A stretch of 64,000 nucleotides of DNA from Whalleya microplaca. Lineage: Eukaryota > Ascomycota > Sordariomycetes > Xylariales > Xylariaceae. This document shows, one piece after another, positions 13,741 to 58,400 of this stretch. The notes beneath the pieces were generated by a model. The model saw only the letters and a list, made by a program, of their open reading frames with translations. It was not told where the DNA came from and ran no database searches. The stretch covers positions 620,001-684,000 of the forward strand of contig MU385713.1 in assembly GCA_022497155.1 (NCBI GenBank), read 5' to 3'. Every line of letters begins with the position of its first letter. The stretch's first letter is position 1. A program made the position numbers and the translations under genes.

Positions 13741-16700
13741 TTAACTAACCCACTTTCTCGCATTGAGAAATAATTTAAACCATGGCCCAAACCGGTGCTC
13801 GCGCATGGCTTCAGGCTTCCAGCTGCCAACATCGCCCATTATTGTGCGTTCTGGATGCGGCATCATAGCAACAACTCGCCCGTCCTTACTCTTAACACCG
13901 GCAATCCCGCCTGGCGACCCGTTAGGATTGAAGGGGTATTGCTCCGTTACTTTCCCGTAATTGTTTACGTATCGAAGAGGGATCAGCCCCGCCTCCTCGA
14001 TGTTATGCAGTCCCGCGGGGGAAGCAAAGGAAGCTCTGCCTTCACCATGGGACACTACGATGGGGAGAGTGGAGCCCGACATATCAGCGAAGAAAACGGA
14101 GTTGTTGGCTGATGTCTCTTCAACCTTGACCATAGAGAAGCGAGCTTCAAACCGGGAGCTTGTATTCTCAACTATCGGGAGAAGTCAGTAAAGGGCAGAG
14201 TAGGCAGAGGCTTAAATATCCGCGTGAAGATGCAAAACAGTGCTGTTGTCACCCTTCTAGCATTGACCCTGAAGGATTGAAAATATCAGGGGGACAAGGA
14301 AGCATTAGACATACCAAATATAGGCCAGTGTTCTGCACCAGGAATTAACTCCTTGAGTCGAGTGAACATCTGACACCCATTGCAAACACCGAACGAGAAA
14401 GTATCGGGACGCCTGAAGAATGTTTCGAAGGTGGTTCGTGAATTTTCGTGCATCAGGATGGACTGCGCCCATCCATTTCCAGCACCAAGAACATCACTGC
14501 CATCGCTCATGTTAGCTGTTGCTGATTGTGTAGATGTTATACGCATATGCATAATTCACATATTGAGAGTTAGAGGCCCAACGAGACACTCGAGATATCC
14601 TGAACTTCAAAAATGGACACTCAAAGGTTTGGGGGAGTGTGAATTCTTACCCGTATGAGAAGCCACCGCACGCAGCTAGCCCACGGAATCCATCTAACGA
14701 GAAGCCGTCCAGAATATCTGACATGTGCACATCGATGGCATCGAAACCCGCTGCGCGGAACGCAAACGCCATCTCTGCATGTCCGTTTACGCCCTGCTCT
14801 CGTAAAATGGCAACTAGATTCAACAGCGGTTAGCGCCTACTTAACACGTATATTACGCAAAGAAAACGAGCGTAATCGACTACGAACCTTTTGGCCTGGA
14901 AACCAAGCCTTTTAGCGTGATCATGGTTGGTAGACTGATATCGGCGGCATCAAACTTCAGCCTGTAGTGGAGGCCGGGATCTTGAGAATCCAGAAGAGAG
15001 TCGTACTCCGATTGCGCACAAGCCGGATTATCTCGCAATCTCTGCATCTCGAAGGATGTACGGGACCACCATTGTCGAAGGGAAACTCTGTCTAGATCGA
15101 CCAGTGTCTTGGACCTATATTTCACAAGAAGGGACTGCTTTGACGTCGCTCGTACGTAGCCGATCGTCCTGATCAACCCAGAAGGAGGCCCACAAGTCGC
15201 AAAGCACTTGTTAAATTTAGTCTCGTCGCCTTTTCGAATCTGGAACACAGCGCCGAGTTCTTCGTTGAAGAGTACATCGAGCACATCGGACTCGGAATTA
15301 GCTAGCTTGTCGAGCGATATCTCAGCGCCGACCTGCCCAGCGAACATCATCTCGGCAATTGTAGTAATAAGTCCTCCATCCGACCGATCGTGGTAGGCCA
15401 GCACGATGTTTTCCTGATAACAACTAGTGTCAGCACTGGCTTTATCACCCGGACATGCTAGCAAAACGAAACGAGGGCGTCATCTGACTTATCGCAAAGA
15501 ACCTCCGAAGCAAAGAGAGAGATTGGGGGGTAGACAGACCTGATGTAACTGCCACATCGCATCGAAGAAATCTCGTATCATTTCAACGTCACGAACGTCA
15601 GGTGCCTCGTTGCCGACTTGCCCGAGGCATTGTGCTAATGCCGAGCCACCCATGGCCCGATGTCCTTTTGCAAGGTCAACGTAGAGCAGGACAGTCTCGC
15701 CAACCTCTTCAATACGCCGAAGCTGGGGTGTCCAAGTGCTGCGCACGTCCTCAACAAGACTGAAGGCAGAAATGACCAGGGAGACAGGAGCAGTGACACT
15801 CTTCGACTCCTTCGTCTCCTTGTCCTTCCATGAGGCTTTCATAGATGTCGAATCCTTTCCTACGGGTATAGAAATGCCGAGCTGAGGACAAAGCTCCATA
15901 CCTATGGCCTGAACAGCCTCATATAGCTCGGCACCCTCTCCGGGATGATTGACAGCAGCCATCCAGTTCGCAGACAGCTTGACACGCTTCAGATCACCGT
16001 GTATGGAGCCTGATTTAATGTCGGCGGCACCCAAGTTCATCAAGCTTTCGGCGACGGCCATTCTAGCTGAGGATGCTGCAGATATAAGCGCAAGATTTGG
16101 CTTTTCTCCCCTAGTAATGTATGTTAGTACGGGCCTGTATGAAATTTGCATAAAACCCTGGTGACAAGAGTCTCTTGAAATCCGTACATGACTATGAAGA
16201 AATAGAAAGGCAAAGACATTGAAGTGAGACCTTGCTTACATTGCCATCGCTTCTCCACGATGTACCTTATTATCAAGATTGAAACTCGTTAGGGTGACAG
16301 CGACATCCGCGACGGGCGTCTGCCAAGGACCAACGAGCTGGTCGCGCACACTTAAACCACCAACAGTGCGGTCACCAATGGTAATGAGGAACATTTTGGA
16401 ACCAACGGAAGGGAGCGAGAAGACGAGTTCTGTGGCCTTAGAAATCATCTCGGTAAGGTTAGACGTGTCATACTGTGCTTTGAGACTTTCGGCTGCGTTG
16501 AAGGGACGGAGACTCTTCTTCACTTTCTGGACCTCCTTGAAGATCCTCCGTCCTGGAGGAAATAGAACGTCCATCGGAAGGTTGATTGGGTCGACAGGGG
16601 GCTGGACAGTAGGCTCGCGATCCGTCAAGACTAGTTTCGCCTCACCGTTTGCATCTTTGGCGACAACGTTTCCGACGACAGAAAATCCACATCGCTCCCT

Positions 16701-17232
16701 TCTGCAGATACTTGTGAACCGATTCAGCCCGTCTCTATTAACGAGCAGGACGTATCTCTCCTGTGCTTCGTTACACCATATTTGCAAGGGCGACATCGAG
16801 TTGTCGGCACTTTCGACTTGGCGGAGCTCGAACTTTCCACCAAAACCAGCATCCTTGACAAGCTCTGGTAGCGCATTCGAGAGTCCCCCAGCACCTACAT
16901 CGTGAATAAACGCAATCGGGCTCTCTTGACCTAACGCTATACAGGTATTTATCACCATCTGAGCCCGTCTTTCCATTTCGGGATTCCCACGTTGCACACT
17001 GTCGAAGTCGAGATCTGCAGATGCTTCCGTGCCTGTGTTGGAGGAGGCCGCACCGCCGCCTGTAATCGGGTATAAGTATTGAATATCTTCCCCCCTTTTT
17101 TTTGGCAACGAATCATATTTTACCAAAGCACTAAAGGGTTGAAGACATACCAAGTCCAATCAACATAGCAGGTCCTCCTAGCACAATGACCTGTGAAGTG
17201 AACATTAGCTGTGGCCCATTACGTGTGCTCTG

Positions 17233-17267
<35 letters not shown>

Positions 17268-17273
17268 GGGGGG

Positions 17274-17305
<32 letters not shown>

Positions 17306-17349
17306 AGAGGGGGGGGGGGGGGGGGCGGCGGGGGGGGTNNNNNNNNNNG

Positions 17350-17388
<39 letters not shown>

Positions 17389-19079
17389 ACCCCCCCCCCC
17401 CCCCCCCCCCCCTCCCCCCCCCCGCGGGATGGCGTAGCACTAGCTGCTGGAGTGCGGGATAAGATTCGGTCTAATTGTCTCGGAAGGGTTGTTCTTACAT
17501 GTGCTCCATCGTGAACATGTGCCTCGTCCTTGATGGCATGTTCAGGCCGTACACTTCCAATACCACCAGCAATCTGCAAGGGTCGCCGTTAGCTAGTCCG
17601 GAAATAAGACACTCAAAGGTAGAAGAAGAGTTCTTGTATGCTCAGCTGGTGTGCTGTTGGTAATATTTACTGACCATTATTGGCTTATGGTAGCCTCTGT
17701 ATTCTGGGGTTTCGGGTTCGGCTATATTCGTGAGGAGGGTTCTAAACGTTCCAGTGAGGGAAGGTCTGCCAAATTCATTATTAAACCGAGCGGACCCGAT
17801 TGGGGCTTCCAGCATTATGTCTAGGCTCGAAGCATAGTGTGCAGGTCTTCCAATGTCAGCCTCCCAAGGCCTTTTGTTGCCCGGGATCAGGAGATCGGAT
17901 ACCCAGAAACCACAGAGGCCTGCTTTAGGAGAAGACCCTCTTCCTACGGCACCTTCGTCACGAATCTCGCCCCCGCTACCCGTTGCAGCGCCTGGGAATG
18001 GTGATATAGCTGTGGGGTGGTTGTGGGTTTCGACCTTGATTAGAGGCTGGACTATCTCCTTGATGAGCCTCCAGCTCCCGGTCGAATAGTCCGGAGCCCA
18101 GTAGTTGCCCTCGTCCCCAGACAGCCTACACAAACAAAAGTTAGAGTGATTTCGCATGGATGCTCGAGCCCTTTGCTACTTGTGTTGCATTTTGAAAGGT
18201 GGACACATATAAATATATACTGCTTACACGGCTGCATTATCGGAATAGGCACTGATGACAAAGTCAGGGGTCGACTTGTGAGTATTCTTGATCATGCCAA
18301 AAAGGCTCTGGTCTTTAGCGACGCCATCGATAGTCCAAGAAGCATTGAAAACATGATGTCGGCAATGTTCGGAGTTTACTTGGGCAAACATGAATAATTC
18401 GATATCATTCTGCTCCGCCCTGGGCTTAGCATAGCACTTCATGATTGATACTAGCGCGAGAAACACGTACGGGTGATCTTCCGAGAGTTCTATATTGGTC
18501 TACCAGGTACTCCAAGCTGAGCTGATCAAGACCCAAGCCTACCTGGTTGTTATAGTCTTGAAGAGCAGCAAGGGGACCCCTCTCATCTGCAAAGATATCG
18601 ACTGCGATGAGCGGGCGTCTAACTCCCTGGGTGAACATGGTGACAGGATCCGGGAGTGTCTCGGTAAGAGTCTCAGTCATGCGATCATGGATGAGGTCTC
18701 TGAACGACAGATGGGCGGGGGCAGACTGGTCGAACTCGATGGTCACGACTCGCCCCCTCTCGATGACGGCGCCCACGCCACATACTTGGGCGATGCTGGT
18801 GGCCTTGGAATTCCATGGGGAAGGGGTATTGTGAGGGGCGATGTAGACGTCGATAGCTTTTTGAGATTCGGCAGAAGGGCGATTCTGTGGCAGTGTGTCC
18901 GCTTGGACCATTTGCTTCACCTTCTCGAGGTCACTCTTTGCCTGGGAGTCGACATAATAGAGCCAGTTGCCAGAGATGCGGGAGACGTTGGCGGCATTCT
19001 GTGTGTTAATGCGGTCGGTGAGCTTCTGGGCCTCGGCGACCGTGTAGCAGGACTGCCCAACCAGAACGTCGTACCCCAT
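13741..19079 (-). CDS. ADE6: Phosphoribosylformylglycinamidine (FGAM) synthase
   Basis: Catalyses the ATP- and glutamine-dependent conversion of FGAR to FGAM, step four of de novo purine synthesis, in the cytosol. Eleven exons: 18471-19079, 18228-18409, 17675-18125, 17499-17573, 17151-17190, 16240-17059, 15540-16110, 14888-15413, 14651-14813, 14315-14496, 13741-14171. All ten introns have GT...AG ends, and the sum, 4050 nt, gives 1349 aa, the usual eukaryotic length. Seen: N-terminal PurS-like part, [85 protein letters not shown], and a C-terminal class I glutaminase domain with Cys1184 in GVCNGCQ and His1312/Glu1314 in PHPER. Intron 4 holds a 10-N gap in homopolymer sequence. It appears functional; whether it is the only copy in the genome cannot be told here. 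Confidence 0.95.
17232..17424. other. 10-N assembly gap flanked by poly-G then poly-C
   Basis: Ten Ns at 17339-17348 are preceded by about 105 bases of almost pure G and followed by about 75 bases of almost pure C. The block lies wholly inside intron 4 of the FGAM synthase gene (17191-17498), whose splice sites on both sides are intact. G reading into the gap from both directions is what no-signal base calls of two-colour sequencing would produce, so this is more likely an artefact than genomic sequence. Confidence 0.85.
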
Positions 19080-31450: not shown

Positions 31451-34400
31451 TCAACCTGATACCATTGGGATCATCTTTCCCAGTATCGAATTTCTCCTCT
31501 CTCTTTTCGGGCCCTTTGCTGTTGATTTCTTGCCAGCTGAGGCAGTCAGCGGCATGAGATCATCTTTCAACTCATCATCATCATCCTGGCTGCTCCCTGT
31601 AGTCATGGACTCCGGAGAGCTGCTGTGTCCACTACTGCCTGCGACCTTCTGATTAGAAGTATGATGCTGGTGACCTTGCGTGGGTGCCCCATTTGAAACT
31701 ACAGGCAATTTACGGATTCCCTTGCCCCAGGCGGTCGGCGAACGCATGAGCATAAAACTCTTGTTGTGTTTGAGTTGGGCTACCTGCTGTCTTGCAATGA
31801 TCAACTCGTACTGATGCATCATGGTTGGATGGTCGACGATCTCCTCCATAGTGAATGCCTTTCTCTCAAGACCCGGGATGAATGGCATATTTTCGGTATA
31901 GTATCTCGCGAGCTCTGCGGCAGGCAGCATCGCACCCCAGATCTCGTAGAATGGCACCGAGCGGATGTCGGGCACTTTGAGTGAGTGTGCCTCAAGGATA
32001 CTGTCCCACGCCGCCGAAATCGTAGTGTGGACAGCACGTGCATGGTCAGGATCAACGGACTGTACGGGTGACGTGATGGAGAGATCGCGTTTCGGGGTTG
32101 GGAGAGGGATGCGTGGCGTCGAGTAGGTGTCGTTAAGGCCCTTGAGCGCCATGGGCTCCATGACAAAGGTCGAGGTTAACAGCGAAATAATTGAACACAG
32201 CATCCTTAGGACCTGGTCGGCGAAGGAAAGCTGCACTTTACTCTCGCAGAACGTGAGTGAGATCTCGACATTGGCGGGTCCCGCCAATACCGACTTCACG
32301 AAGATATCCGAGTCCTGGTGGTTCGACTCTACACAACTAAGCTTGCAGCAGGCATTTCCGATGGAGAAGCTAATTGACTTGTCTTCCTCGGCTTGGTTCT
32401 GGTGGTAGACTACGGTGCTGAGCCGAGTCCAAGATGGCCAAGGCGTGCACTTTTGGATGATGTCCACGATTTGCATGTTCTCATGAGGAATACTGGCAAT
32501 ATATTGACTCTGAACACACCTGAAATATTCGTATGGTGTGATGGGAATATCGGGCAGTCGCGTTCGGACTGGTATGACGTTGCCCATAGGGCCAAGGATG
32601 TCTGAGACAGCGTGGCAATCTGGAAGGCTTAGATGCTTCCCGTCCACGACTTGCCCAAAAACCACGTCGTTGGTGCCGGACAGGTTGGAGAGAACAATAG
32701 ACCAAGCGCCCTTGAGGATAGTCTCGAATGGTATTCCTAAATTCTGTAATGACCCAGTAGGGATCTGCTGATGGAGTGTCCTCGAGTGCATGTTCGCACT
32801 CATAGGCGAGGGTTGTGATATGACTTGCGTCACCGAAGCGCCTTGAAGAAGAATACGCCAGTAGTCACTCGCGCCGTTAGCATACGTGGATTGTGCAGCT
32901 CTGATAACTTCGCAGAAGCCAGGGCTCTTCGTAATACGGTCGCTACGGCTGTAGAACCGACTGAGGTCTCGTACAAGCACCTGTATTGAGAGATCGTCAT
33001 ACTGGGCCCGGGAAAGGCGTATTATGAGGACCGAGCTCTTTCCTGCATCAAGGTAAGAGAATTTGGTTACCGGTTTACGGAAGTCGATAGGTAGCAATTG
33101 CTCTCTCTTGATGATTTTGGCAGCTAGGTTATTGAGCCGCCAACTTTGACATTGATACCTCAAGAACTCTGGACGGTAACATCGAAGGACGGTCTGGTAG
33201 AGCTGGCGACCGTGAGACACGAATGCAGTCCGAAGTACCGGGTGGACTTTGGTTAACATGCAACATGCATGGTCGAGTTTGTTCCAGTCGAGCGAGCCCG
33301 AGATGTTAATCATGAAGTAGTTGACGTTGCCTTGGCTCTGTAGCATTCCGGATTCGACGCACATCATTTGAATGGATGATGCTTCGGCGACGTCTTCGAT
33401 CAGGCTTCTGTCAGAGCCAATCTGAGGAGCAATTGATTTGTCGACAAAGGTGTTTCGAGGTCGTTGTCGTGTGGACTTTGCTTCTCGAATAGATGCGGCT
33501 GGAGTTCCCATTGTTGCAACTCCTCTGCAAAGTTCAGTGAGAGAGAGGTCTCGAAGAAGATCTATAATGGAAATATTGATGCCTCGTTTCCGACATTCAA
33601 TAATTAAATCATGGGCTAGGACAACATCTCCACCCAGACTCATGAATCTATCGCTGCTGAGTATAGAGTCATCACTGATACCTAGGACTCCAGCCCATAC
33701 AGTCCGCATCTGCTGCTCCACTTCAGTCAGCGGAAGCGGTTTGAATCCGGAAGCCTGAACCTCCTGTGGGTTTGAGACCTCTGCGAGACTGAGGAGCTGC
33801 TTCCGGGACAGCCCTGTAATCACACGCTGGAGATCTCGCCTATTGACTTTCAACGATGGTGTCAATGGCATACATTTGATAGGTATGTATGCCGAGGGAA
33901 CCATGTAACTGGGGAGGCTCTCCCGAAGGACAATCTCCGCCATCTTTTTAGCAAGATACAGCCTTTCCCTTGTAACTCGGCTGAGCTTGGTCAAGTCGAC
34001 ATTTCCGTGAAACAGACTCTCCCCGAATTCTACAAATGCAGCAAGGATAGGGGGCGAGTTAGCATCATTGAAGGCAATCGTCTCGACTACGACATCGACG
34101 CCTCGGCCCAGGCATTGTCGAAGTTTTGGCTCAACATCAGCAAGGCGGAATCTCTTGCCATCGATCTCGCACTCCTCGCCTCTGGCTGAAACAAATTCGA
34201 TCTCTCCTTCTTCGCGGTAACGCACGAAGTGTCCAGTCTTGAGCAGGCGACTACCTGACTTTTCTAGTAATGATTTCGCACGAGCAGCGCTTTTCCCAAC
34301 CCAGTTCTTTGCACCAGGGTCATTGACGTCGAATACGCTCGCCAGCGTTGGGCCTCCTATCACGAGCTCACCAAGGGCGCCAACCGGCATCAGACGGTTG

Positions 34401-37400
34401 TTATCTTCAGAACTTACAATCCAGAGATTTCCGCAGAAAGGGTTATTAAAGCATTGCGTAGCATTGGCATCCGTTACTTCGGTTGCGGCTAGTCCGAGCG
34501 GACAGGCTTCAGCGGAGCCGTACACTAGTAGTACCTTAGCCTTACCGGCCCATGGTGCATATGTGTCAGCATCAAGTTGCCGTGTACGGAAGCAAACAAC
34601 GGCGAGATCTGGCAAGCTCTCTGGGTCGAGCTTTCTCGACAAAGATGGAGTTAGGTATGTCCAATTGACATTCATGCGTCGAGCAGCGCCCAAAAAACCT
34701 GTAACCCTCTCCGCGGCCGAAGGGACACATACACAGCCCCCAACAACCAAAGTGGTGAGCACTTCTGTCAGCGCAATGTCGACGCTGTATGATGAAAGTT
34801 GCATGACACGGCTGGATGGGTTGATCATGAGCGTAGCGGCCTGTCCGGCACACGCAGTTGCTAATGCCCCGTGGCTGTATGAAATGCCTTTGGTGCTCTT
34901 GGAAGGCCCAGAGCTGAAGAGAATGCATGCTATTCCGTACGAAATCGACTTGGGCGGGGTCATATCAACAGCCTGAGCAGACATTGCCGTGATAGTTTGC
35001 TCACAGACGATAATGATTCTGCTTGCAAGACCATCTACATGCCTTCGAACAGTTTCGGAAACTAGGACAAATTCGGCGCCTACAACCTTGATAATCCATG
35101 AAAACATGGAGTGTGTCTCGGCATCGACAGGCACTATAATTCCCCCAGCACTGCAGACAATTAGTTCATGGTTCAGTCTGAATGAGAGCCTTCGACTCAC
35201 TGAAGGACGGCCAGCATGGCAACCACCGCCCATCGACTCTTGTCGACGATCACTGGCACGGGCATTTGTGGCTTCAGGCCCTTGGCTAAGAGGTGCTTGG
35301 CGAGTACCATGGAGAATTTGTGAAGTTCCGCATAGGATAAGTCTCCGTCCCAAGCGCAGACAGCTTGGATCTCAGGATTCTGCGACGCTTGCTTCGCAAC
35401 CAATTTGTGGACGTGTTCATTCGCCAGTTCGACTTGAGGCATGCTATTCCATGCTAGGATCTGCTTATGGTCGTGAACGCTGAAGAGATCTGCTTCTTTG
35501 ACTATGCCACCTGGAGAATCCAATATGGTCTCTATAGCCCTCCCAAAAGCATAAGCTACGTTAGTTGCTTGGTCGGAAGCAAGAATGCGACACCCGATAT
35601 CAACGGTAATACTTCCATCGTGGAAGTATACATCAGTGTTTAAGTCGTATTCTGAAGCTTGCTCGGATCGCACGTGGCGACACTTTGTGTTTCCCAGAGA
35701 GTCGTCGAAGACACATTCATACCCGAACGAAAGACAGGTATTGAATAGACGATTGCCCTTGATCTTAAGTTCATGCTCGATTCTTGTTACTGGTACATGC
35801 TGATGATATTGCGCACGGCGACGCTCGTCCTCAGCGTCTAGTAGGAGCTGTGCAATCAATTGTTCAGAAGGAACATCCAGCTTGCATGGTAATATTGCCG
35901 AAAACGACCCGACAGCATCCTTTAGACCTTGGACTGGAATATCCCGACCGGAAGTGCGGTAGCCGAAGCAAACTTTGTCAGTTCCGATGTAAGTTCGCAA
36001 AAGCAGCCCCCATGCAACTCGAAGCACTGTGGAGATGTCTACCCTATACTCGGTCGCAAATCTCTTGAGATGCTTGCACGGGATCTTGAGATCGACAGAT
36101 GTAGTCTCCCACTCGTTCGGAACCGGGGCCTTCGAGAGTAGAGTGGGAAATCGGCATGGTTGAACATTACACAGATGTTCCCTCCAGAACTCCATACTGC
36201 AAGGAGTAGCCTTCAAGCATTGTATATACTCAGAATACGATACTTCGGAAGCGGCGGGGGCTTGACCATCGAAGTAAGCCTGTTCTAGTTCCCCAAAGAG
36301 GATAGCCATGCTAGCAACCTGAATGCCTGGTTAGCACCACAAGAATAAAGGTAGATAGAAGACATACATCACATATGGCCAGGCTAATCTCCAGCTTTAA
36401 GAAGGTATGCCCGAGAGCCTGACAAACTACGAGCCTGTGCCAAGGAACGCCCTCGTTTAACGGCAACGGGGGTAGATTGTCAATGGCCATCAGCGCATCC
36501 TCGATACTCTCGCTCTCAAGAAAAAGCATGGTGGGCGAGTGGCAGCGCAATACTATCTGGTCATACAAACCGTCCTTCGAAACGCTTTGACAGAAGACTG
36601 TTCTTAGAGCTGTATGCTTCTCCGACACCTGTAGCCAAGCAGCACAAATGTGAGAGATATCGACAGGGGCACCCGAAGTATCAAGGTCATAGATAATCTG
36701 TGCCTTGGAGCTCCCAGATATCAAGGACTGGCTTGTGAGTATATTCTGCTGATTGGGCGTTACGGGATAGATGGCCTCAATGTTTGAAATATCTAGATTA
36801 AGGCGGGGGAGAACTTCTCTATTCAACCGACTTAGTCCCTCACTTGTAAGATTCACATGAGGGACGTCTGATAGACACAATTCAGGCGATTCGTATTGTA
36901 GTTTGTTAATAACTTGGCGTAGAAGTTTCTCATACGTGCGGATCCAAAAGTGTATCTCCTTCTGATATCTGGAATTTTGATGATAGATGATTTTGAACTT
37001 GGTTTCACCCTGGTCGACCGAGATCGATACCTCAAATGCAGCGATGCGCCCAACAGAACGCCCAATATCTGATGTTTCTGAAGCTAGCGTCCTTCCCGGA
37101 ATAGGGAGCTGCTCAAGGAGGCCGTCGTGGCTTTCTAGATTCTGCATTGTCCCCGCATTGGTGAACATAAGCTCGAGCGGACAACACGTAGACGTGAACG
37201 ACTTGGCGGAATTGGCATCCATTAGACTAGCTGAGAAGTATGGCACACCTCTTTCGGCAATAGCTCGCCGCAATTCTTTCAAGCGGCCCAAAATAGCGAG
37301 AATGTTCTCCGTGGGAGAGATGTCCAAAGCGAGAGGGCAGAGGGAGGTGAACCATCCCACAGTCTCGGATACGTCTCGCTCTGTGTCCGAAGAGTGTCTC

Positions 37401-39697
37401 TCATGCTCCTGGTTCCAGAGAGCAGGTACTCTGCGATTGCGAAATGTTCGCGCGAAGGAGAGAAGAAGCGTGGCTATGTAGACATCAGAGGAATCCATCT
37501 TCAAACTTTCATTCGCGGCCTCCAATTTCGACGTAAACTCTTTACTTATCGTGAAGCCGATGGCTGTCGTATTCCCGTATGTGTTGGAGGCATCATCAAC
37601 CCCCCAATATTCTAAGTCCCCTGCTAGAATCTCGAACGGAAGAACAGTGGCCGATTCCATTCCCTGTATACGATGCCTGTGATGTAGTGTCCATCCTCTG
37701 AAAGAGAGAGATCCGCCTGAGATCAGATGGCCGTTGATCAACAGTCCCTCTAAGTCATCAACAATCACGCGCCAAGACTTAAGATCTATAACGAGATGAT
37801 GAGCAACCAAATAAATCATTTGGCATCCATCGTGAGTGTGAAAGTGGTGGGCGACGAAAACTGGTCCAGTCTCAACGTTGATTGTTGCCTGAGCGACTCT
37901 AACCGCATCTTCGACTTCGGCATCCGTGCTCACCGAATGATGGAAGAAGCGATATGAGCCCGAGATCTCTGGTTCTATCGCCTGATACCAGGAGCCCTTA
38001 CTTGGTCTAAAGCGGCATCGAAGCATAGCATGGTGACCAACCAGAGCTTCTACTGAGGCACGTACATCTTCGATACTCATATTTTGCTTTAGCCGCAACA
38101 ATACGCTCTGGTTGAATCTGTATTCGCCGCCCTGGGTTTCGCGTCTACCAGGATCGTTACCCATGGCCGTATGGAAGTATAGACGCTGCATGGGAGAGAG
38201 CTCAAAAACTTCGGCAGTCACCTCGCTCGTATTCCGGGAGTGTACCGGGGTCGACATTGCGAGGTCAGCAAGTCGGGTCAACGATGTTGTCTGCATGACA
38301 TCTTCTACTTCGAGAGAGATGCCCTGGGATTTGCACCTACGAACAAGCTGTGATGCCGCTTGGTGGTCGCCGCCCAAGCTTGTAAAAGACTTGTTCATTC
38401 CGATACTTGTCGGATCGACTTGTAATACCTTGCTCGCGGTCTTTTGGAGCCGTCTTCCAATAGCACTTGTAGGCGGCGCTGTGCTTTCTTCCGGGTCCAT
38501 TGAAAGGATTTCCCTATGTAGTTGTTCATTCGCATTCTGGATCCATGTCTGCAGTTTTCTCCGATTGTTGTTGCCGTGCTCATCTAGGGGCATCTTCTCT
38601 AACAATACCCACACCTCAGGCACTAGAGTCGGCGAGACTTGGGACTCAATTGCCTTCCGGATAGCCGGTAGCTGGTTGGTGTAGTAAGCACTCTGCAGCT
38701 TGACTTCACAATCATCTGGACCCTCCACTACACAGCTTGCCAGAGTGATGAATGCCACTACTCGACCTTCAAAAAATCCAGCCTTGGGTTTGAGCACGCA
38801 TGCCCTCGCGACATCGCTATGTAGAGATGTAACCTTTTCAACCTCGTTGTGACGTTTTCGCGATGGTCTTGGTCTAAGGTAAGCTACGGGGGTAGACCTG
38901 GCTGCTGCCTTCGGGGGGATCGGCGGGGCACGACAACGTTGTGATGTTGGACGTCTCGAATGATCGAGAGAAATATCTGGCGTGCCCAGTTCAAGGGGAC
39001 TAACGATCATTGGCGGTATCGGGCTCTCGTTCGACTGGGGCGGGCTGATAGGTGTCACACAAGTCTCAAGCTCTGCGATAGTTTTACAATTCATAATGTC
39101 CTTAGTCCTGATCGAAAATCCCGCGCTCATACAATTCGCCCGCAGTTCTCTGGCTGCTCGATGATTGCCTCCAAGATCCACAAACGATTCATCTAAGGGC
39201 AGTGCGCCATCCTCAAGTCCTAGAACATCGGCCACTGCCATTGTGAGGCGCTTCTCTATCGACTCGCCCATGGACCTCCTCCACTTCATGTCGACAGAAG
39301 GAGCATAAACAGATACCGAGCGTACAGAACCCTTTCGTCTCGATCTCCGGTCCCGACGAGGCATTTGAGGTTCACTAGAACTTGAATCCGTGAAGCAAGA
39401 GGATTCGCTATGAAGCTGGCGCAGACCATGAAACGAGTCGGGGAGTTCGCTCGCATCAATGCCTAAAGCATCGGCTACCGCGACCGAAGCTGATCTAAGA
39501 AGATCCCCAGTACCTTCAGCCCTCCTTTGGGGAGAGGAAGTGTCGATAGACGGGAGGGTCATCCGTTTGGGTACGCTGTATGCCTTTTTGGAGGTAGGCA
39601 TTTCTGCTGTCATCCTCCTGAATCCATCCTTAGGTAGCAGCGGGGAGGTGTCGGGCGAGGAGAGAGTTAAGAAGGTTTCTGCGTCTAGATTCGCCAT
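31451..39697 (-). CDS. NRPS-like protein lacking all carrier serines (pseudo-NRPS)
   Basis: Three exons, 36368-39697, 35201-36318 and 31451-35150, with 49- and 50-bp GT...AG introns and no internal stop, give 2715 aa. Order by eye: disordered N-terminus; T-like fragment about 66-105; T-like 145-215; adenylation C-terminal remnant 290-395; T-like 412-482; epimerization 497-930 with HHxxxD at 633-638 and VGWFTSLCPL; condensation from 975; adenylation about 1410-1930; T-like 1955-2030; condensation about 2065-2490; T-like 2523-2595; charged tail. The phosphopantetheine Ser of LGGDS reads His179 (LGGNH), His445 (LGGDH), Val1992 (LGGDV) and Met2557. Condensation HHxxxDG reads SLAICDV (1105-1111) and SRAQYDD (2196-2202). 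Adenylation cores are eroded: SSGPSKSTKG, YGSAEA, KTGHFVRY; the A10 Lys is kept (LKVNRR). It cannot load or condense amino acids by the known mechanism, yet the frame is intact. Confidence 0.9.
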
Positions 39698-44695: not shown

Positions 44696-47600
44696 CTAGA
44701 CGACGACCTCTTCATCATCGGGATCCTCGATGCTCGTCCTACGAGCAGCCTCGTGAGTCCGCTTGATTTTCTCACCGTCATCGCCGGTGATCTCGTTCGG
44801 GGTTTCGGCTCCAACATCGGCAACAGACTGCTCCTCGCCTTCCTTACCCTTCTGCTTCTCTTTCTCCTTATCTTTGTCTTTGGACCCAAAAGGCCAGAGA
44901 CTGGTGAAAGCTGAGGTCTTTTGACTCTGAGAGGGTGGGTGTACCGGGAGGGGCTTGACAATGACACCGCTGTTGCTCTTCTCGCTGCTGCCTGTGGCGG
45001 CATTCTTGTCGACCTCAGGCATGGCAAAGTCACCGAATTCCTCGTCATCGTCGTCCTCGTCTTTAGCTCTAGTAGTAGGCTCGTCTTTTTCCGAGTCTGA
45101 GTCATCGTCCCTGCCGTCTCCGAATTTCTCCTTGCCTCTACGTAGGGCGCCTCGCCACCAGCTACCCCGCGATGCACCCGTGCTCCAAGACTCTGTGTTG
45201 TTGTTATTATTGTTGTTGCGGTCATCTGTAAGACCATCGTCGCTATCGTCATCCACGTCGTCTTCTCCATCGTCTTCGAAAGGATTTCGGAGGATCCGGT
45301 CAGGCTCTCTAACTAACTTGGACTCATCTGCCTCGTCACCGTTCTCAATCTCGGCTGATGATGCCGATGCGCTGTTCGCATTCTTCTGGTGCATTGCAAG
45401 CCTTGCAGCTAACTGCAACCGAGCACGTGAGGGGGGAATGTTCAACGGAGGAGGCGGGGGCGGGGGCGGAGGGACAGAGGGAGGATCCATTGACGACGAT
45501 GAGGTATTCAGCGGATCAGTGTATGCGCGAAACTGTAATAAAGTCAGCTCATTACTCTAAACAACAAGGCTATGTATGTATATATGTAAAAATCCTTCTA
45601 AAAGATGAAGTGAATTAAGATGAAAGGGATACTGGTAACCTAGCGAAACGCCAATGGGAAAGGAAAATGCGCTAAGGTTGTGTAAAGGACATAAAAGGGC
45701 AACGTAAAATGAGTTCAGCTTACCTCGTTGTTAACATCCTCTTCGTTATCTTCGGCGTCGTCTTCTTCCTCATCGCTAGAACTGCCGAAGCCTGATCCGC
45801 TCAACAGTCCGGAACTAATGCTGAAAGGGCCGAGGCTACTACCACTGCCATTATCTTGCATGTCCATACCTGTACCGCCGCCATTCAACCCGGCCTCGGC
45901 GAGCGCGTTTGAACCACCGCCTTGGCCGCCACCGAGCCCAAGACTAGACAGCCCCATACCACCGAGTCCGTTGCCGGCCATCTGCCGATTGTTCATAGCA
46001 ACCTCAGGTCTGACACCGCCAAGGATAGCGTTGTCTCTTTCGCGTGTCTCGGCCAGGGCGCCCTCGACGTAGTTGATCCAATCTTGACTCATCACACGGT
46101 CTAAGACAAGCTCTGAAAGAAGCTCCGGAGGGTTGCGTTCCGTAAACTTGACAACCTCTTCAGCGATGAGCGTCAAGTGTCCCATGTAACCCATACGGGT
46201 CTTCGTCTGGGCCTGTGATTGCTCGCTGGAGGCTTGTCCACTTATTATGGCATTGGTCACATCAGCAGCTTCGAATAGGGATATGGCTAAGGTCGGGTTG
46301 TAGCCACGGTCCATTGGCCCGTTGAATACCTGCTGGACTATATCATAGACCACATTGTGGAGGAAGTTATTCCAAGGGTACTTGAAAAAGAATGACTGTA
46401 TAAACGGTTAGCTTTCGATTCCATATCAACGATGATACTTAAGTATATTTACCAGAATTGTCGGCACCACTTGATGTTCCACAAACTGCATCTTGAGGTA
46501 GTCACCAACGACGGGTTCCAACTGTTGCTCCGCACCTGACACGGTTGGATCTAGCTGCTGGGTGCCTCTGATGGGCGACTCGGTCGGTTGAGCCTCAGCG
46601 GTAGTACTAGCTTCTCCTGATGGTATTTGCGACGGCTGGTCGGCAATCGAATCTAAACTGCTCTTTATAGACGAGTCAACTACAGCAGGCTTACTATCGG
46701 TGGTATATAGAGGTGCGGTTTCCTCTGCTTCCGTCGTTGCACTGGGAGCACTGTTTGTTACCTGTGGATCAGATGAAGATGGTCCCTCAGATGTAACCTG
46801 TGAAGTTACCGTTTGAGCCCCTGTTGTGATAAAAGGGTTGGAACCCTCTGGACTATTGTTCGATGCGTCCTCCCCTTGAGGTGCCTCATTTGTTGGTTGG
46901 GAAATCTGCGATGACCCCCCCTCTGACTTAGCTACTGTTTGGGCGATATCTGCTGACTGCACAACCGTGGGCTTCTTGGGCGAGAGCGGTGCAACCATAA
47001 GTTCAGGGTTCTCGAACTGCTGCTCGTTGACCTTGCCGTCTTGGACGTTTAATCGTGGAGAGCTTAGCGGCTCGTCTACGAAATCATCGTCATCCCTGTC
47101 GAGGAAAGACGAAGCCGGACCAGTGGGAATCTCGTCTTCGGCCTTAACAAATTCGTGAGATGTGTCCTCGGTCATTTCACCTGAAGGGGTGACCTCCTCA
47201 AAACCGTCGTCATCAGATGCATTGGTTACCTCGAGGCGTCGACCATCGTCAGGCGAGGAATGACGCATTCTCATGGTCAGATCCTCTTGCGATTGCGCCT
47301 CGTCACCACGGTTGGCAGTAAGTCGCCCATCGGCCCGAAGCCGTTGTCGCTCCACATCCCGGACAGCAATGACCTGCTCGGAGCCGACTTCGTTGAGCAA
47401 AGCCATGTTACTGCAATGCAAGAGCTCAGCCATGAGCTCGCACGTCTTGAAGCGGTCAAAGCCAAGGGGCTCGATCTTGTCTCCAAATGTAGAGTCGAGT
47501 CGTTGCTTCTGGGACGGCGCATTGAGGATTAGGGACATGAAATCAGGCACGTGGTCGGCGAAGAGCCGTAAGAGAGTGCCAAGATAGATAGGATCGCGGC

Positions 47601-48689
47601 TAGAGGGTAAGGTGTTCGAGTCGGTGCCGACATCCGGATCATAATCGGAGTTGTTTTTTCGGATTACCTCGATGACGATTCCTACACCAACGGTCAGGGT
47701 GTTCCCGCCGCCAAGCATATACTCAACGAGCTTGTCGACACAAGGCTTGGATACGAGCTGGCGCGTGAGCTCGTTAGGGCCGATGCAAGCCTGGTCGTTC
47801 TGCGAGGCGTTGGCCGAGACGGTGATGATAGCCTTGATGAAGTCGCCGGCAGAAGTTTGGATGGCCCAATTGTGTTCGGGGCCCAGGAATGAGAGCAGCG
47901 TCGGCATGACGTCCTTGGTATAAAGCCACTGTTGATCGCCGATGTATGTCAGCACGGGTGGTTCAGTTCACTGTGACTGCGTGGGTTATTGGGAGTTTGG
48001 AAAGATAACTAACTTACCTCAACTATACCCTGGCCACTGTCGGTCCTTTCAAGGCTCACAATCTTGAGCAAGAGATCCATAATCATAGGACAGTCGACAT
48101 GGCGCAGCATGTTAGGAATGGCATCATCAAGCGACTTGAGGAGTTCCAGCATATCTTCGGTCTTCTTGTCAAAAAGCGACTCGTTCACCTTGGTGAAGTA
48201 GCTTGCCTGCAGGGGATCCAGCGGAGCAGGACGCTGCAGGAAGTTCCAGAAGTTGTGCAAGAGGCCCTGGCTCTCCATCAAGGCCTCATATATGGACCAG
48301 TTGTCGGAGGACAGGACCTCGGATGCGACATAGGCGTACCTGTTCCGCTTCTTCTCGATCTCATCTTCATCGTTGGTGGTCTCGTCATTGGTGGTCTTGG
48401 ACGAGGCACGTGGACGGGTGAAGGACAGGCCCCTAGACTTCCCCTTCTTCTCCTCCTCCTGGTCATCGTCGGGGTTTTCTACGGGCTCGAGCTTCGGGGC
48501 AACGACATATTCGAGGAGCTTCTCGAGGACCCTTTCCTCGCGTAGATACTCGATGAGCTTGGTATTGTGCTGCTTAAGCTCCTGTATCAAGTCGCTCTCA
48601 TCGAGAAGGTCTTCCAGCTGGAAGTCGGGTTTATCGAGGATAGTATCGATGGTAGAGATGTTGGCGTAACCGCCAAACCTCCAGAACAT
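44696..48689 (-). CDS. SAPS-family Sit4/PP6-associated regulatory protein
   Basis: Four exons, 48018-48689, 46453-47928, 45724-46395 and 44696-45532, all in phase 0, give 1218 aa. The family (yeast Sap155/185/190, fission yeast Ekc1, animal PP6R) binds the Sit4/PP6 phosphatase catalytic subunit and acts in cell-cycle and TOR signalling. Seen: MFWRFGGYANISTIDTILDK, LLDESDLIQELKQHNTKLIEYL, YVVAPKLEP, WAIQTSAGDFIKAIITVSANAS, VGVGIVIEVIRKNNSDYD, a long Ser/Thr/Pro/Glu-rich insert (about residues 430-700), then KYPWNNFLHNVVYDIVQQVF and VTNAIISGQ, a Gly-rich and acidic segment, FRAYTDPLN and a poly-Pro run ([10 protein letters not shown]). Length is normal. A conserved housekeeping gene, it separates the NRPS-like gene from the polyketide locus. 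Confidence 0.93.
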
Positions 48690-52446: not shown

Positions 52447-55400
52447 TCAACTCATTGCCTGCGCGATGAACCTGCTCACTTGATCGGCAGCATCCTCTTT
52501 CATCATAGTGAAATGATTTGCCCCTCGTAGCACCTCGATCGTGATGTTGTTAGCCCCGACAAGTTGATCCCAACCGTTCGGGCCCAGATCAATACGCTTC
52601 TTCAGCAGCCACCTCATGTTCTCTGGATCATCAGGTCGTATCTCGATAGACCCGTCCTCGCTGACTCCGTCCTCCGCCCAGATGACCCAAGTCTGTAGAG
52701 GTGTCCTTCCCACGAAGGGCCGTGGCTGGTGCGTGTCTAGGACCTCGATGAACGCCAGGAAGTGAGAAAGCAGCCATGAGGGCGGCTTCCTCCCGCCGCC
52801 CGATCCGAACAGATCAAGCCGGTTGAAGTCGTCATATAGCCTTGATGGGAGCTTTTCAAGTCCGATTGGGTTTGGGCTGTCTAGCAAGATGAGCCGTTGT
52901 ACGTCTTGTCCGATGGCCACGAGATTCTGGGCGGCATCGTACGCGCAGATACCACCAGCGGACCAGCCGCCCAAGAAGTATGGCCCGCTTGGTTGGCGTC
53001 TGCGGATCTCGGCGAGATAAACTGCTGTCAGCTCTGTGAACGAACACTTCATGTCCTCGGCGCGCTTGACGTAGGGGCTGTTGAGCCCGTACACCGCGAC
53101 AGACTTGGTATCGATATCTGGAAGCGGGAGATATGAACTCGCTAGACCCGATCCGTCTGGAAACAGCCAGAGAGTCTTCGTGGCAGCCACAGGATCACCT
53201 TGCAGAAGGACCGAGGTAGCGGGTGGCATTACGAAAGGTGCTAGTTTCTCAACAACGGGGGTCGTCATCGTGAGTTCAACTATAAATGGAGCAAAAGGGC
53301 CCATTAGCGACCAGCTACTGCGGCTAGGATTGTTTCAGGCAAAGGATGTTACTCACTAGTTGATGTCCTACTGAATGATTTCCCGATGTCTTCGAAATCA
53401 CAGCCTAATACTCCATTCGAAAGTTCGGAAACATTGGAAAGCGACGTGCTAGATGACACTGTGTGCATCGAGACCAACCCCTCGGTTGGAGGTGGAGTTG
53501 GAGGCGCAGAGGATTCTTGAGATGCTGGCTCACCCGTGATGAGCCGGATGAGGTCGCCGACTGTGAGCCCATCCAAGAACGAAGCAGAGTCGACCGTCAC
53601 ACCAAAGTCTTCGCGAATCCGGTCGGCCATTGTTAGCGAGAGCAGTGAATCCACTCCAAAGTTGACAAGGTCCTCATCATCTTGCAGTTCGGCTATGGAA
53701 ACACCGACTTCGTCTGAGATCAATGCTTTTATTTGATCCGCCTTGTTATCTTCCTCCTCGGGTTTCAACAGGGCGGGAGGCTGTGTCATTGGTCGTGTTG
53801 CCACTGGCTCTTGGATCTTCTCAACTACAGCAGGACGCACTTGGTTGGACATGCTCTGTTTTGAACTTGCTGGGCCTGGGAGTACTATATCGAGAAGCTT
53901 CCTTTTGATGGCAGAGAAGGTGACACCTTCGTAAACAGCTACAATTTCATCCGAATCCAAAACGTAGACGTCTCCGAAATATGAGCTAGCATCTTTCTGC
54001 TGCATCTTGAGATAAGTTCGGTACGTCGTCTCCGGGGATAGTGCTTTTACAATCCTCATGTTCTCCCATCCGTGGTTGATGAAGACCTGGCTTTTCGAGT
54101 CGACGGCATCGTTGCCGTTCATCGTGAAACCAGTAATTTGTCCTAAACTGTCGATCCAATATGGGGGACATACCCATTTGTCAGACTCCCCAGCTGGTGT
54201 GTTGAACTTCACCCTTGCGGTGCACTCGAGATCGGCCGATCGGATGATAAGCTCGCGACAGCCCTTGAAGGAGTCATCGTAGTCTACGAGAGCGCTGAAG
54301 AGCTTGTAAAACATCCCTGTCTTTATGAGATGAGCCGAGTCTGAATCGTCATGAATTGACCGTTGCAAATACTCGATTCTCGACTTGACTAGGAACTCAC
54401 GGCGTTTCCACTCAGCCGTCCATTGACTCTTTTTTGTGAAGAATCCGGTGCATTTCGCGTGGTTAGCAATTGTCTTACCATCTTTTGAAATGCTAGAAAT
54501 GCTCAGCGAGGCCGATTGCGTTGACCAATTAGCGGATGCCTTCATTTCGATGAGCTGGATAGGCTCATCGTCATTCAGTATAAGGGATTTGTCTACGGCC
54601 ATGTTGGAAACTTCAATACCAGTATCCGACTTGTCGGGGAGAGATGACTTCTCTAGAAGGCGACCAAAAAGCGTCAGAGCCATATCAGCGTATGCAGATG
54701 AAGTACACAATGGTCGACCGTTGACCTTGTGTCCTTGAAGAAGTGCTTGGAGATCAGGGTGTTTGAGATCAGACTGAGCAGTAATCCAAGACTCGTCCCC
54801 AGTGGATTTCTCGTCCACAATCATCTGAACGGACGATGTGAGACACTGTTTTTCCTCTGCCATGGATACAGGCAAGGCTAGATAATTCTGGGCAGGCGCA
54901 TTACCCTTGGTCAAACACCAGTCATGCACATATGGGATCCAGTGCTCTTTCATCTCCCACTGGTACGCCGGTAGCCGCAGGACACGCAGGGTGTCCTTAA
55001 AGTCGCTGTGGTATTCGTTCCAATTGATAGATAGACCGCATTCATACAGGGCATTTAATGTTGAGACGAATATTTTCCATTGGTCTTCATTACGCCGCAA
55101 GCTCGCAAAGGCTTTGACGCGGGACCCAATAGTACCCTTAAGCACTATACCATGTGGAGTTAGTGAATACCTCTTTAATTATATTCAGGAGCCGCAAGTC
55201 ATATTCCAGAGGGTCGAATTCCTAAGGAATCTCGAAAAGACTGACAAAGCCATTTAAACGAGTTGAAACAAGAAAGGAAACCTAGAATACGTACTATTGG
55301 AACAAATCGGATGGGGTCCGATTTCAACCCAAATCGTCTTCTCCGAGATGTTCTGCGACTCATTTGCTGACTGCAAGGCTCCGTAGAAGTTGACAGTCTC

Positions 55401-58400
55401 TCGGCAGTGTCGGCTTAGATAGACTGCTGGCGAACCAAAGTCGGAAGCACTGGTGATGGTCTTGCCTAAGATTGGGGATACTATGGGAATAGAAGGGTTT
55501 TTGAATATGATGGATCGACAGCTATGCCTGAATGCCTCGAGCATGGGCTCTACCTGGGCAGAATGGAAGGCAAACTGGACCTTGAGTTGTGTCCCCTTAA
55601 GCGATAGATTTGCGAGAGCATTCGCGAACACCTCGATCTCGCTGCTTGGTCCGCCAACGACAGTCTCTTCCGGTCCATTGATACAAGAAATCTCCAGATC
55701 TGGACGAGACGCTATAAGTGAAACGACCTTAGCGGCAGAGGCTTTCACCGCGAGCATTGCGTGGGTCCCAATGGAGCAGTGCCTCTCCAACAACGATGCT
55801 CGAGTCCCAACGAGGTAGATAACATCCGCATCGGAGAGCACGCCGGCAATAGCCATAGCAGCATATTCACCAAGACTATGGCCAACTACTACCTGTGGGC
55901 TGACTCCAAGAGCTTTCCAATACTTGCCCAATGCAATCTGCAAACAGGTAATGGATAGCTGCAGGGTCGCCGGCGAAAGTTCCTCCATGGGTGTAGCACA
56001 ACTGCCGTCAATTATCGGAAGAACAGATTCGAAGCCTTCAACGCGAACGGTGTCATCAAGATCCATAATCATAGATCGAAATTGCGGAATATGGAGAAGT
56101 TGGCGGCCCATGCCAAGATATTGCGCCCCTTGGCCGGTGAAGCAGAACCCAACACTTGTAACAGCCGCGGCGGTTGACAAGAACTGTTCTTTGCTCTCTG
56201 CCATTTGGAGCGCATTCCGGATACCATGGATGTCAGCTCCAGAGACAATCGTGCGGAAACCATGATGGATACGACGCGCGGTGGTAGTATAGGAAAGAGA
56301 CCCGACGGGCAGATCTGGATGGGCATCCAGATATTCTCGAAGTGTGCGAATATTTCGCCTCAGTGATGTCTGGGTCTTTGCCGACACAGCAACCATATGC
56401 AACGGTCTCGTATCCTCAGTTAATTGGGTAACTCGCAGTAATGGGGCATCCTCAATAAGCACCGAAGAGTTCCCTCCAGCTGCGCTGAAATTGTTGACGA
56501 ACGCCCGTCTCCCTTGAGGCTTGTCCATTGGTCTGGTCCAGGGAGTTGGTTGCATAGCGATATGGATGTTTCGCTGATCCAGGTCCGTAGGGAAGTTTCT
56601 GTTAATCCTGGTCTTAATGCCTACATGGGGAGGAATCATATTCTTCTCCATCATGAGGAGAACCTTGATTAAAGATGCAACCCCAGAAGCCGACTCAGCG
56701 TGACCGATATTAGCCTTTGCGGATCCGAGATACAGGGACTCGTCCCGACGGGAGTGTTCAGGGGAGAAAACACCTAGGACCGAGTCCATCTCGCATGCAT
56801 CGCCATGCTGAGTACCAGTTCCGTGCATTTCGACGTAACTAACTTCAGAATTGTCTATACCAGAAGAAGTCAAAATTTTCTGGAAGATAGCACGTTGCGC
56901 ACCCGAGTGTGGCCGGGTGATGGATGCAGCCTCGGCCGAATGGTTTGTATAAGCCCCAAGAATCGTCCCAAAAATGGGATCTCCATCAACTTTGGCATCT
57001 TCTAGCCGCTTTAGGACGACAGTGGCTACGGCTTCTGCTCTGCAATATCCATCCGCACTGTCGTCAAATGTGTTGCAGTTACCAGTGCGAGAGAGGAAAT
57101 GGCCACGGTCTAAGCCAGCGAAGTTGTCAGGATTAGTAAGAACATTGGTTCCTCCGGCAATGGCAGTATCGCAATCACCTCTCCACAAAGAATTACATGC
57201 AATATGGATGGCAGCAAGACTGGAAGAGCAAGCAGTATCTACGTCGAAACTCGGTCCAGTAAATCGGAAGTGGTAATTGATACGACCTGGAATGAATGCG
57301 CGGTTACCACCAGGGATGAAGTAGGTGTCAACATTTTGACCACTGTTCACCTCCCGATAGTCATCGCTGGCAGTGCCGTAGAAGACACCGACTCGATTCC
57401 GCTGCGTCGAAGGGGTACCATCAGGAACCATTCCTGCCATCTCCATTGCTTCATATGCTGTCATCAAAGCCAATCGCTGGGCAGGATCGGCTTGCTCGGC
57501 CTCTCTAGGAGACATGCCAAAGAAACGAGAGTCGAAGAGACTAGGCTGCCGCAAGAAGCAGCCTTTAGTCACCCCACTGGTATTCTTCTTCTTCCCCGTA
57601 GGGTCGAAGTATAATCGCGGGTCGAAGCGGTCCTTAGGGATTTCTCTATGGACATCAAGTCCGGAAACAAGGAGTTGCCAGAATGCTTCATTGTCATCGG
57701 CCTCAGGGAACCTCCCCGAGAATCCAATGATAGCAATCTTGGACCTATTGGAAGCTTGTTCCTTGGCAACGTTGCTGCCACTCCGCGATCTGATAGCCGT
57801 GTCCATGACTTTGACGGCCTTGATTCCAGATTGACGAAAAGCAGCAGCCAGGCTCTACTCCACAGTAAGCATTAGCAATTACTCTGCTTGATGGATTTCT
57901 GAAACTACCGGGGGCATATAAAAGAGTAGAGAGAGCGCACGACTTCAAAGTTATGTCCTGGGGTAGACTGCAACTGAAATCGACCAAATAAGAAAACAAA
58001 TACTCTGCAGACTCACCTGTACACTGCCTGATGCAAAGGGCAAAATGACCACTTCAGAAACCTTTGACTGCGCCAAAGTGGCGGGTGCATGATCTACTAT
58101 GAGGTCCCACCTGAGTTGCTTGGATAGAATCTCCCAGACTGCAGTCTGTAGAAGGGCTTCACAAGATCCTGAAGAGATCTTTTGTCCATCCGAGTTAGAC
58201 AGGATGTCCAGTCGGGGGACTCTCTCTCGGGAATCCCCACAGATAGTGCCGAAAAGACTTTCTGTATCGGTGCCTGCATAGAGATGCGAGGAGTGGAATA
58301 ATCCAGTGACCGGAACCTTTACAGACTTGAGATTTGGATTTTTCGCGAAGAAACTGCGTAAATGTGCCGGAGGGCCAGAAATAGTGACACTCCCATGGCC

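What the first reader, a model, noticed from the sequence alone, without database searches (positions are those of the whole stretch)
31451..39697. Intact giant NRPS-like gene stripped of its catalytic residues: a candidate maintained pseudoenzyme
Seen: one continuous 2715-aa frame over three exons with good splice sites, yet the Ser that carries phosphopantetheine is replaced in every carrier-like domain where the motif can be aligned (His179, His445, Val1992, Met2557), and the catalytic His of both condensation domains is replaced (Leu1106, Arg2197). Known: NRPSs need both for peptide synthesis. Inference: neutral decay of an 8-kb coding region would leave stops and frameshifts, particularly in a genome with RIP, so selective loss of catalytic residues with frame retention points to a new role, for example as a scaffold, partner of another synthetase, or regulator.
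Basis: partly seen in the sequence, partly recalled or inferred. Interest (0 to 1): 0.88.

Follow-up and report, generated by a model that had tools for sequence, protein, structure and literature searches.

The report
Dead peptide-making megaenzyme kept by evolution
This fungal gene looks like a giant peptide-making enzyme that has lost nearly every catalytic residue, yet relatives with the same losses occur in many orders of one large class of fungi, so the protein has probably been kept for another job such as a scaffold.

Summary
The minus-strand gene (31451-39697, two short introns) encodes 2715 aa with the replaced residues listed.

It is not a local oddity. I aligned 187 relatives from at least ten Sordariomycete orders; 144 of 188 show the layout T1-A(stump)-T2-E-C-A-T3-CT-T4 and 33 lack only T2. 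153 of 188 keep none of the carrier serines, condensation histidines, E Glu or A Asp; where the site aligns, E Glu is found in 0 of 186 and CT His in 0 of 187. Intact collinear relatives (Macrophomina, Lasiodiplodia) show that the family is the truncated C-terminal half of a large NRPS, and that Met2557 is not a true loss.

Neutral decay is rejected at protein level: about 20 stops expected against the closest relative, none seen. dN/dS could not be computed. Several dead sites are fixed in new states; CT resembles the non-catalytic X-domain of bacterial NRPSs. Best reading: a maintained pseudo-synthetase acting as scaffold or recruiter; the role is inferred.

The parts
31451..39697 (-). whole gene: three exons 39697-36368, 36318-35201, 35150-31451 (2715 aa)
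   Evidence: frame, splice sites; collinear with P0001, 2290 of 2717 columns identical, 4 gap columns
36319..36367 (-). intron 1, 49 nt, lies just after the Asp of the C1 His motif
35151..35200 (-). intron 2, 50 nt
39053..39256 (-). T1 carrier-like domain (aa 148-215), Ser replaced by His179
38522..38815 (-). C-terminal subdomain (stump) of a lost adenylation domain (aa 295-392)
   Evidence: best match is the C-terminal end of the third A domain of the intact relative P0228, 69.7 bits against 44.6 for the next
38252..38467 (-). T2 carrier-like domain (aa 411-482), Ser replaced by His445; no T2 is detected in 33 otherwise complete members of 188
36878..38215 (-). epimerization-type (E) domain (aa 495-940): HHxxxD kept (His633, His634, Asp638), catalytic Glu replaced by Gln763
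35449..36784 (-). condensation domain C1 (aa 972-1400), catalytic His replaced by Leu1106 (Gln in 101 of 179 members)
33809..35406 (-). adenylation (A) domain (aa 1415-1930): substrate Asp1607 kept, ATP-site residues lost (His1790, Ala1805)
33509..33730 (-). T3 carrier-like domain (aa 1957-2030), Ser replaced by Val1992
32159..33415 (-). terminal condensation-like (CT) domain (aa 2062-2480), SHAQYDG of the intact relatives is SRAQYDD here
31799..32047 (-). terminal T-like domain T4 (aa 2518-2600), Met2557; no Ser at that position in three intact relatives either

Best explanation
The gene belongs to a pseudo-synthetase family found across the Sordariomycetes sampled. Shown by sequence: it descends from the C-terminal half of a multimodular NRPS, has predicted folds of A and E domains in the two pieces modelled, lacks residues needed for adenylation, carrier loading, condensation and epimerization, and does not evolve like a neutral frame. 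Inferred: it makes no peptide by the standard route. Instead it works as a large non-catalytic platform whose former active sites are plugged or turned into binding sites (R/K with D/E in CT, Gln in C1 and E, a pocket with invariant substrate Asp in A) that dock partner proteins, or hold a small ligand, in a pathway common to these fungi.
For: Relatives from ten Sordariomycete orders (one species per order looked up). Layout by profile in all 188: 144 complete, 33 without T2, 7 without a detected T1, 3 without T4, 1 partial. Catalytic sites in 188 (gaps set aside per site): T1 Ser 3 of 182, T2 17 of 155, T3 3 of 188, T4 0 of 185; C1 His 12 of 179; CT His 0 of 187; E Glu 0 of 186 (Gln 164); A Asp413 3 of 188 (His 156); A Arg428 0 of 188. 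153 of 188 have none of the four Ser, two His, E Glu and A Asp (a gap counts as absent here). Non-family NRPSs nearly always keep them, as do P0228-P0230 apart from T4. Selection: 19.8 stops expected in a neutral simulation (minimum 10 in 100 runs), 0 seen; one-rate model worse by 10341 log units (143 sequences); 189 sites at least 97% conserved. Ser sites of T1, T2, T3 are fast (90th, 80th, 95th percentile) while the replaced E, C1 and A sites are slow (6th, 16th, 15th). Folds: pLDDT 81 and 85, matched to A and E domains. CT: basic residue at the His in 156 of 187, D 141 or E 31 at the Gly, like the HRxxxDD of the X-domain that recruits P450s (passages of PMC11546977).
Against: No expression, interaction or phenotype data were seen for this gene. 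dN/dS could not be run. The relatives are predicted proteins from capped result lists, so broken copies would be under-sampled. T2 keeps Ser in 17 of 155 and C1 His is present in 12 Colletotrichum proteins, so some members might keep single activities. The replaced CT site itself is only of middling rate (55th percentile). The A-domain Lys517 equivalent is kept in 127 of 186, which weakens a uniform amino-acid-binding role. The E domain keeps His and Asp almost everywhere, so a different reaction there is not excluded. The X-domain likeness is a short motif only, with the exact R..DD in 54 of 187.
Confidence: 0.55

Rival explanations
1. It is a partner subunit that works in trans: other synthetases bring loaded carriers, and its C, E or CT domains handle or hold those chains without chemistry of their own, or with a residual reaction of the E-type site.
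For: E-type HHxxxD is kept (His 186 of 186 and 168 of 186, Asp 186 of 186); the same genome holds an NRPS on contig C48 with A-T-E-C modules, intact at the sites that could be scored.
Against: E Glu, CT His and C1 His (all but 12 of 179) are gone. On this contig the condensation-domain search of the genome lists only this gene (candidates capped at 30). The nearest secondary-metabolism genes found among the ORFs scanned are a PKS and an MFS transporter beyond a SAPS gene.
Confidence: 0.2
2. A ligand sensor: the A domain still binds an amino acid or similar small molecule without adenylating it, and signals through the other domains.
For: Substrate Asp1607 in 188 of 188; Pro1700 in 134 of 143 and Leu1701 in 139 of 143, positions that vary widely in non-family NRPSs; Cys1669, Phe1670, Arg1671 in 143, 140 and 140 of 143 (not compared with controls). 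The A N-terminal subdomain has the lowest mean rate of the domains.
Against: Lys517 equivalent kept in 127 of 186 only; conservation may be structural; Asp1607 is conserved in active NRPSs as well (226 of 230).
Confidence: 0.15
3. A decaying pseudogene that happens to be open in this species.
For: Fast overall evolution; variable residues at the Ser sites; T2 lost in several lineages.
Against:: no stops here or implied in the near relative, conservative changes, strong rate heterogeneity, similar losses in 187 relatives; 155 of the 188 proteins are 2400-2950 aa long.
Confidence: 0.03
4. An active enzyme with new chemistry at the E/C1 sites (for example an acyl transfer on a soluble substrate).
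For: His633 and Asp638 in 186 of 186; Gln763 in 164 of 186 at a very slow site.
Against: CT His lost in all 187 and C1 His in 167 of 179; carrier Ser missing in most members.
Confidence: 0.07

Closest known systems
Large multimodular fungal NRPSs such as P0228 (Macrophomina phaseolina) and P0230 (Lasiodiplodia theobromae)
   Same: aa 280-2603 are collinear with residues 3167-5543 of P0228 at 33.7% identity, better than its earlier modules (28.2%); the domain profiles find their best T2, T3, T4 and A-stump matches at the collinear place
   Different: those proteins are twice as long and keep the catalytic residues; here the part between T1 and the A stump is missing and the catalytic residues are replaced
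X-domain of glycopeptide NRPSs (condensation fold, HRxxxDD, recruits P450s; passages of PMC11546977 and PMC8949500)
   Same: CT has SRAQYDD here; basic residue at the His in 156 of 187 and D or E at the Gly in 172 of 188 rows
   Different: fungal, first His is Ser (as in the intact relatives), not shown to recruit anything, sits in a protein whose other domains are dead too
ChNPS6 subfamily with a degenerate A domain (passage of PMC2823734)
   Same: a conserved degenerate NRPS domain kept over a long time
   Different: ChNPS6 keeps a complete module and makes a siderophore; here no module is complete
Epimerization domains of TycA, TycB, GrsA and PvdL (PDB)
   Different: catalytic Glu is Gln763

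Membership tests
functional nonribosomal peptide synthetase | carrier Ser in T domains | tested here: not met
functional nonribosomal peptide synthetase | second His of HHxxxDG in C domains | tested here: not met
   Leu1106 and Arg2197; family counts
functional nonribosomal peptide synthetase | A-domain ATP-site residues (Asp413, Arg428 equivalents) | tested here: not met
   numbering recalled, placed by alignment
NRPS superfamily by descent | Pfam Condensation, AMP-binding and PP-binding domains; collinear with an intact NRPS | tested here: met
epimerization domain (fold) | E-type fold with HHxxxD | tested here: met
epimerization domain (active) | catalytic Glu of the EGHGRE motif | tested here: not met
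   Gln763; Glu in 0 of 186 members, 62 of 64 controls; that this Glu is catalytic is recalled; PDB 9bfg has Ala at that place
pseudoenzyme | fold kept, catalytic residues lost in orthologues | tested here: met
   folds predicted for two pieces only (aa 280-950 and 1484-2027)
pseudoenzyme | purifying selection on the coding sequence (dN/dS) | not testable with these tools
   no orthologue DNA held; protein-level substitutes
pseudogene | stops, frameshifts or neutral substitution | tested here: not met
X-domain | HRxxxDD in a terminal condensation fold | tested here: inconclusive
   SRAQYDD; basic residue plus Asp in 125 of 187, exact R..DD in 54 of 187; CT fold not modelled
X-domain | recruits tailoring oxygenases | not testable with these tools
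   no interaction data

The most novel reading that the evidence does not exclude
Sordariomycete fungi carry an ancient pseudo-megasynthase: half of an NRPS assembly line that lost its chemistry at or before the base of the sampled class and was kept as a multi-site docking platform, with its terminal condensation domain converging on the plugged, recruiting X-domain of bacterial glycopeptide synthetases.
Probability: 0.45. Interest if true: 0.9.

Novelty: new variant of a known kind. Interest (0 to 1): 0.8.

Why it matters
Proteins labelled as peptide synthetases in many fungal genomes would be no synthetases at all. They would inflate counts of secondary-metabolite genes, and searches for their peptide would fail. 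If the protein has a conserved non-catalytic role, it opens a question that can be tested in harmless laboratory moulds: what a dead assembly line of about 2700 residues is for. It also gives an ordered series of changes (intact relative, losses at the base of the family, later loss of T2 in several lineages) for how an enzyme becomes a pseudoenzyme.

Tried and rejected
Fusarium NRPS12: some relatives bear the database name 'Nonribosomal peptide synthetase 12'. Aspergillus naming (nrps12 = pesM/fmqA, in a table passage of PMC6737921) may be its source, so I do not equate this family with Fusarium NRPS12 of the literature (passages of PMC6480918, PMC10455376 and PMC5675463, not used as evidence).

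MGG_15248 of Magnaporthe: considered as an orthologue because of its 'incomplete first module' (PMC2823734 passages). Not confirmed, since its sequence was not held; its expression (PMC7379127 passages) is not used.

Prior report: nine paper searches listed no paper that I could see to be about this family as an inactive synthetase; the tenth was for the X-domain. Searches returned nothing. I judged by listings and passages, some of my phrases were narrow, and most subscription papers are not held, so this is weak.

dN/dS was dropped because no fungal orthologue DNA is in the collections. The first rooted parsimony ran on a tree whose outgroup rooting had failed; repeated. In one search the outgroup letters under T1 are an alignment artefact and are not used. 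The C-terminal motif [ED]S[ML]TxG[ST]S was sought as a possible regulatory site: 73 of 143 tails, and the second end pattern in only 7 of 143; not pursued. Left out of the 188: short pieces P0185, P0187, P0189, P0201, P0203, P0205, P0208; the 20 proteins over 5000 aa new (14 of the 20 examined); and the other non-family hits. All three protein searches list only the best 120 of capped candidates, so 187 is a lower bound.
Full report
WHAT IS THERE. The gene lies on the minus strand, 39697 to 31451, in three exons with introns of 49 and 50 nt that have good donor, branch and acceptor sites; the protein is 2715 aa without an internal stop. Pfam finds three condensation-superfamily stretches, one AMP-binding domain and three PP-binding stretches. 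The window is part of contig C4 of a 48.1-Mb genome. Searched with the Lomentospora relative, that genome shows this gene at 37-43% identity and other places, on other contigs, at 23-36%.

A FAMILY, NOT AN ODDITY. The first search gave 67 relatives of 2259-2813 aa, 35-84% identical, most with xylarialean names. A second, from the Lomentospora member, reached Microascales, Glomerellales, Sordariales, Magnaporthales, Diaporthales, Coniochaetales, Thyridiales, Lulworthiales and Hypocreales. A third, with a profile, added Neurospora and many Diaporthales-like proteins. One species per order was looked up; the other order labels are recalled from names. All 188 proteins were scanned with the domain profiles: 144 show the full layout; 33 lack T2, among them Hypocreales such as Fusarium and Tolypocladium, all five Monosporascus sequences, and some Annulohypoxylon-type Xylariales; 7 lack a detected T1; 3 lack T4; 1 is partial. 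155 of 188 are 2400-2950 aa long. In the tree each labelled order forms one group (143 sequences), but support for the Glomerellales group is weak (0.40), 14 sequences were left unlabelled, and at least five unnamed ones (P0048, P0050, P0057, P0060, P0061) were put in Xylariales by me. A rooted tree of 188 plus outgroup is.

CATALYTIC STATE. In the 188 (gaps set aside per site) Ser is found at T1 in 3 of 182, T2 17 of 155, T3 3 of 188, T4 0 of 185; His at C1 12 of 179 (all Colletotrichum) and at CT 0 of 187; Glu in the E domain 0 of 186; Asp413 of the A domain 3 of 188; Arg428 0 of 188. 153 of 188 have none of the four Ser, two His, E Glu and A Asp (gaps counted as absent). As a control, 79 non-family proteins from the first two searches were put through the same profiles: Ser at T2 47 of 48 and T3 188 of 190, C1 His 162 of 173, CT His 50 of 53, E Glu 62 of 64, A Asp413 229 of 230. 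This set contains P0208, probably a family fragment. T1 and T4 have no useful control there (none and 2 hits).

ORIGIN. P0228 (Macrophomina, Botryosphaeriales), P0229 (unnamed) and P0230 (Lasiodiplodia), each about 5500 aa, keep the catalytic residues in the corresponding modules, and residues 3167-5543 of P0228 are collinear with aa 280-2603 here at 33.7% identity; its earlier modules also align, at 28.2%. The profiles for T2, T3, T4 and the A stump find their best match in P0228 at the collinear place. T1 is best matched by the first T (49.7 bits against 34.7 for the third), so the stretch E-C-A-T-C-A(N) in between may have been deleted; that step is tentative. Rooted parsimony puts the loss of E Glu, CT His, A Asp413, A Arg428, C1 His and T3 Ser on the stem of the family, which implies a few regains (C1 His in Colletotrichum, Asp413 in three Daldinia members, T3 Ser in three), and leaves T2 Ser open with eight changes. 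If C1 His was never regained, seven separate losses are needed. In the three intact relatives the last domain, T4, has Leu, Leu or Met at the Ser position. A Ser lies one residue earlier in two of the three, as in 138 of 185 family members, so Met2557 is not part of the decay. The same genome carries an NRPS on contig C48, intact at the E, C, A and T sites that could be scored (its CT site could not be), whose last T also lacks Ser.

SELECTION. No orthologue DNA is held, so dN/dS was not run. Substitutes: (a) neutral mutation of this coding sequence to the 15.6% amino-acid difference from P0001 gives 19.8 stops on average, never fewer than 10 in 100 runs; none is seen. (b) Changes against P0001 are conservative, mean BLOSUM62 0.29 against -0.45 for random single steps; the mean falls with distance, to -0.21 for P0066. 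(c) A gamma model beats one rate by 10341 log units, and 189 sites are at least 97% conserved (143 sequences). Databases list predicted proteins, so broken copies would be missed. The Ser sites of T1, T2 and T3 are at the 90th, 80th and 95th percentile of rate, whereas E Gln763, C1 1106 and A 1790 are at the 6th, 16th and 15th; CT 2197 is at the 55th and A 1805 at the 52nd. So the carrier function was let go, while three of the dead catalytic sites were held in a new state.

HOW IT MAY WORK. In CT, SHAQYDG of the intact relatives has become S-R/K-AQYD-D/E: a basic residue at the His in 156 of 187, and D 141 or E 31 at the Gly. The X-domain of glycopeptide NRPSs has HRxxxDD, no condensation activity, and recruits P450s (passages of PMC11546977, and PMC8949500). 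I read this as a plugged, docking-type condensation fold; that is inference from a motif. In the A domain the substrate Asp is invariant (188 of 188; 226 of 230 in controls). Pocket positions 1700 and 1701 are nearly fixed while they vary in controls, and 1669-1671 are nearly fixed too, which leaves room for ligand binding without adenylation; the Lys517 position, kept in 127 of 186, argues against a uniform role. Where T2 is gone (33 of 188) the E domain has no adjacent carrier. A scaffold or recruiter is therefore the best single guess, with trans-partner and sensor as rivals.

LIMITS. No transcript, interaction or phenotype data. Motif numbering (Asp235, Asp413, Arg428, Lys517, E Glu) is recalled from the GrsA/TycA literature and placed by alignment. 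The label of novelty rests on nine paper searches in an open-licence library.

Noticed in passing
window 1-10000: AT-rich stretch (GC 0.22-0.35) with RIP-like dinucleotide indices (TpA/ApT 1.33-1.37; (CpA+TpG)/(ApC+GpT) 0.29-0.57); an M19 dipeptidase piece lies at 9522-10067.
   Followed up: partly
window 52447-58811: Non-reducing PKS (SAT, KS, AT, DH-like, ACP and thioesterase stretches) on the same strand, separated from the NRPS-like gene by a SAPS (SIT4-associated) gene (45715-48689); an MFS transporter follows at 61433-62893.
   Followed up: no
window 14880-19079: FGAM synthase (purine biosynthesis) gene pieces on the other side, so the dead synthetase sits between housekeeping genes.
   Followed up: no
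P0228-P0230, P0232, P0233 (C-terminal T): Large fungal NRPSs with intact catalytic residues end in a T-like domain without Ser at the carrier position (Leu, Leu, Met, Ile, Ile). It may be a distinct non-carrier terminal domain.
   Followed up: partly
aa 2601-2715 (window 31454-31798): The fast-evolving tail carries a short motif [ED]S[ML]TxG[ST]S; 73 of 143 proteins match a looser form of it.
   Followed up: partly
P0270-P0292 and P0175-P0177: Diaporthales-type members are 3.3-3.6 kaa long, with some 490-690 residues after T4.
   Followed up: no
G000 contig C48, about 168-189 kb: Stretch with several NRPS modules incl. A-T-E-C, intact at the sites scored; best match to the family in this genome outside the gene itself.
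   Followed up: partly
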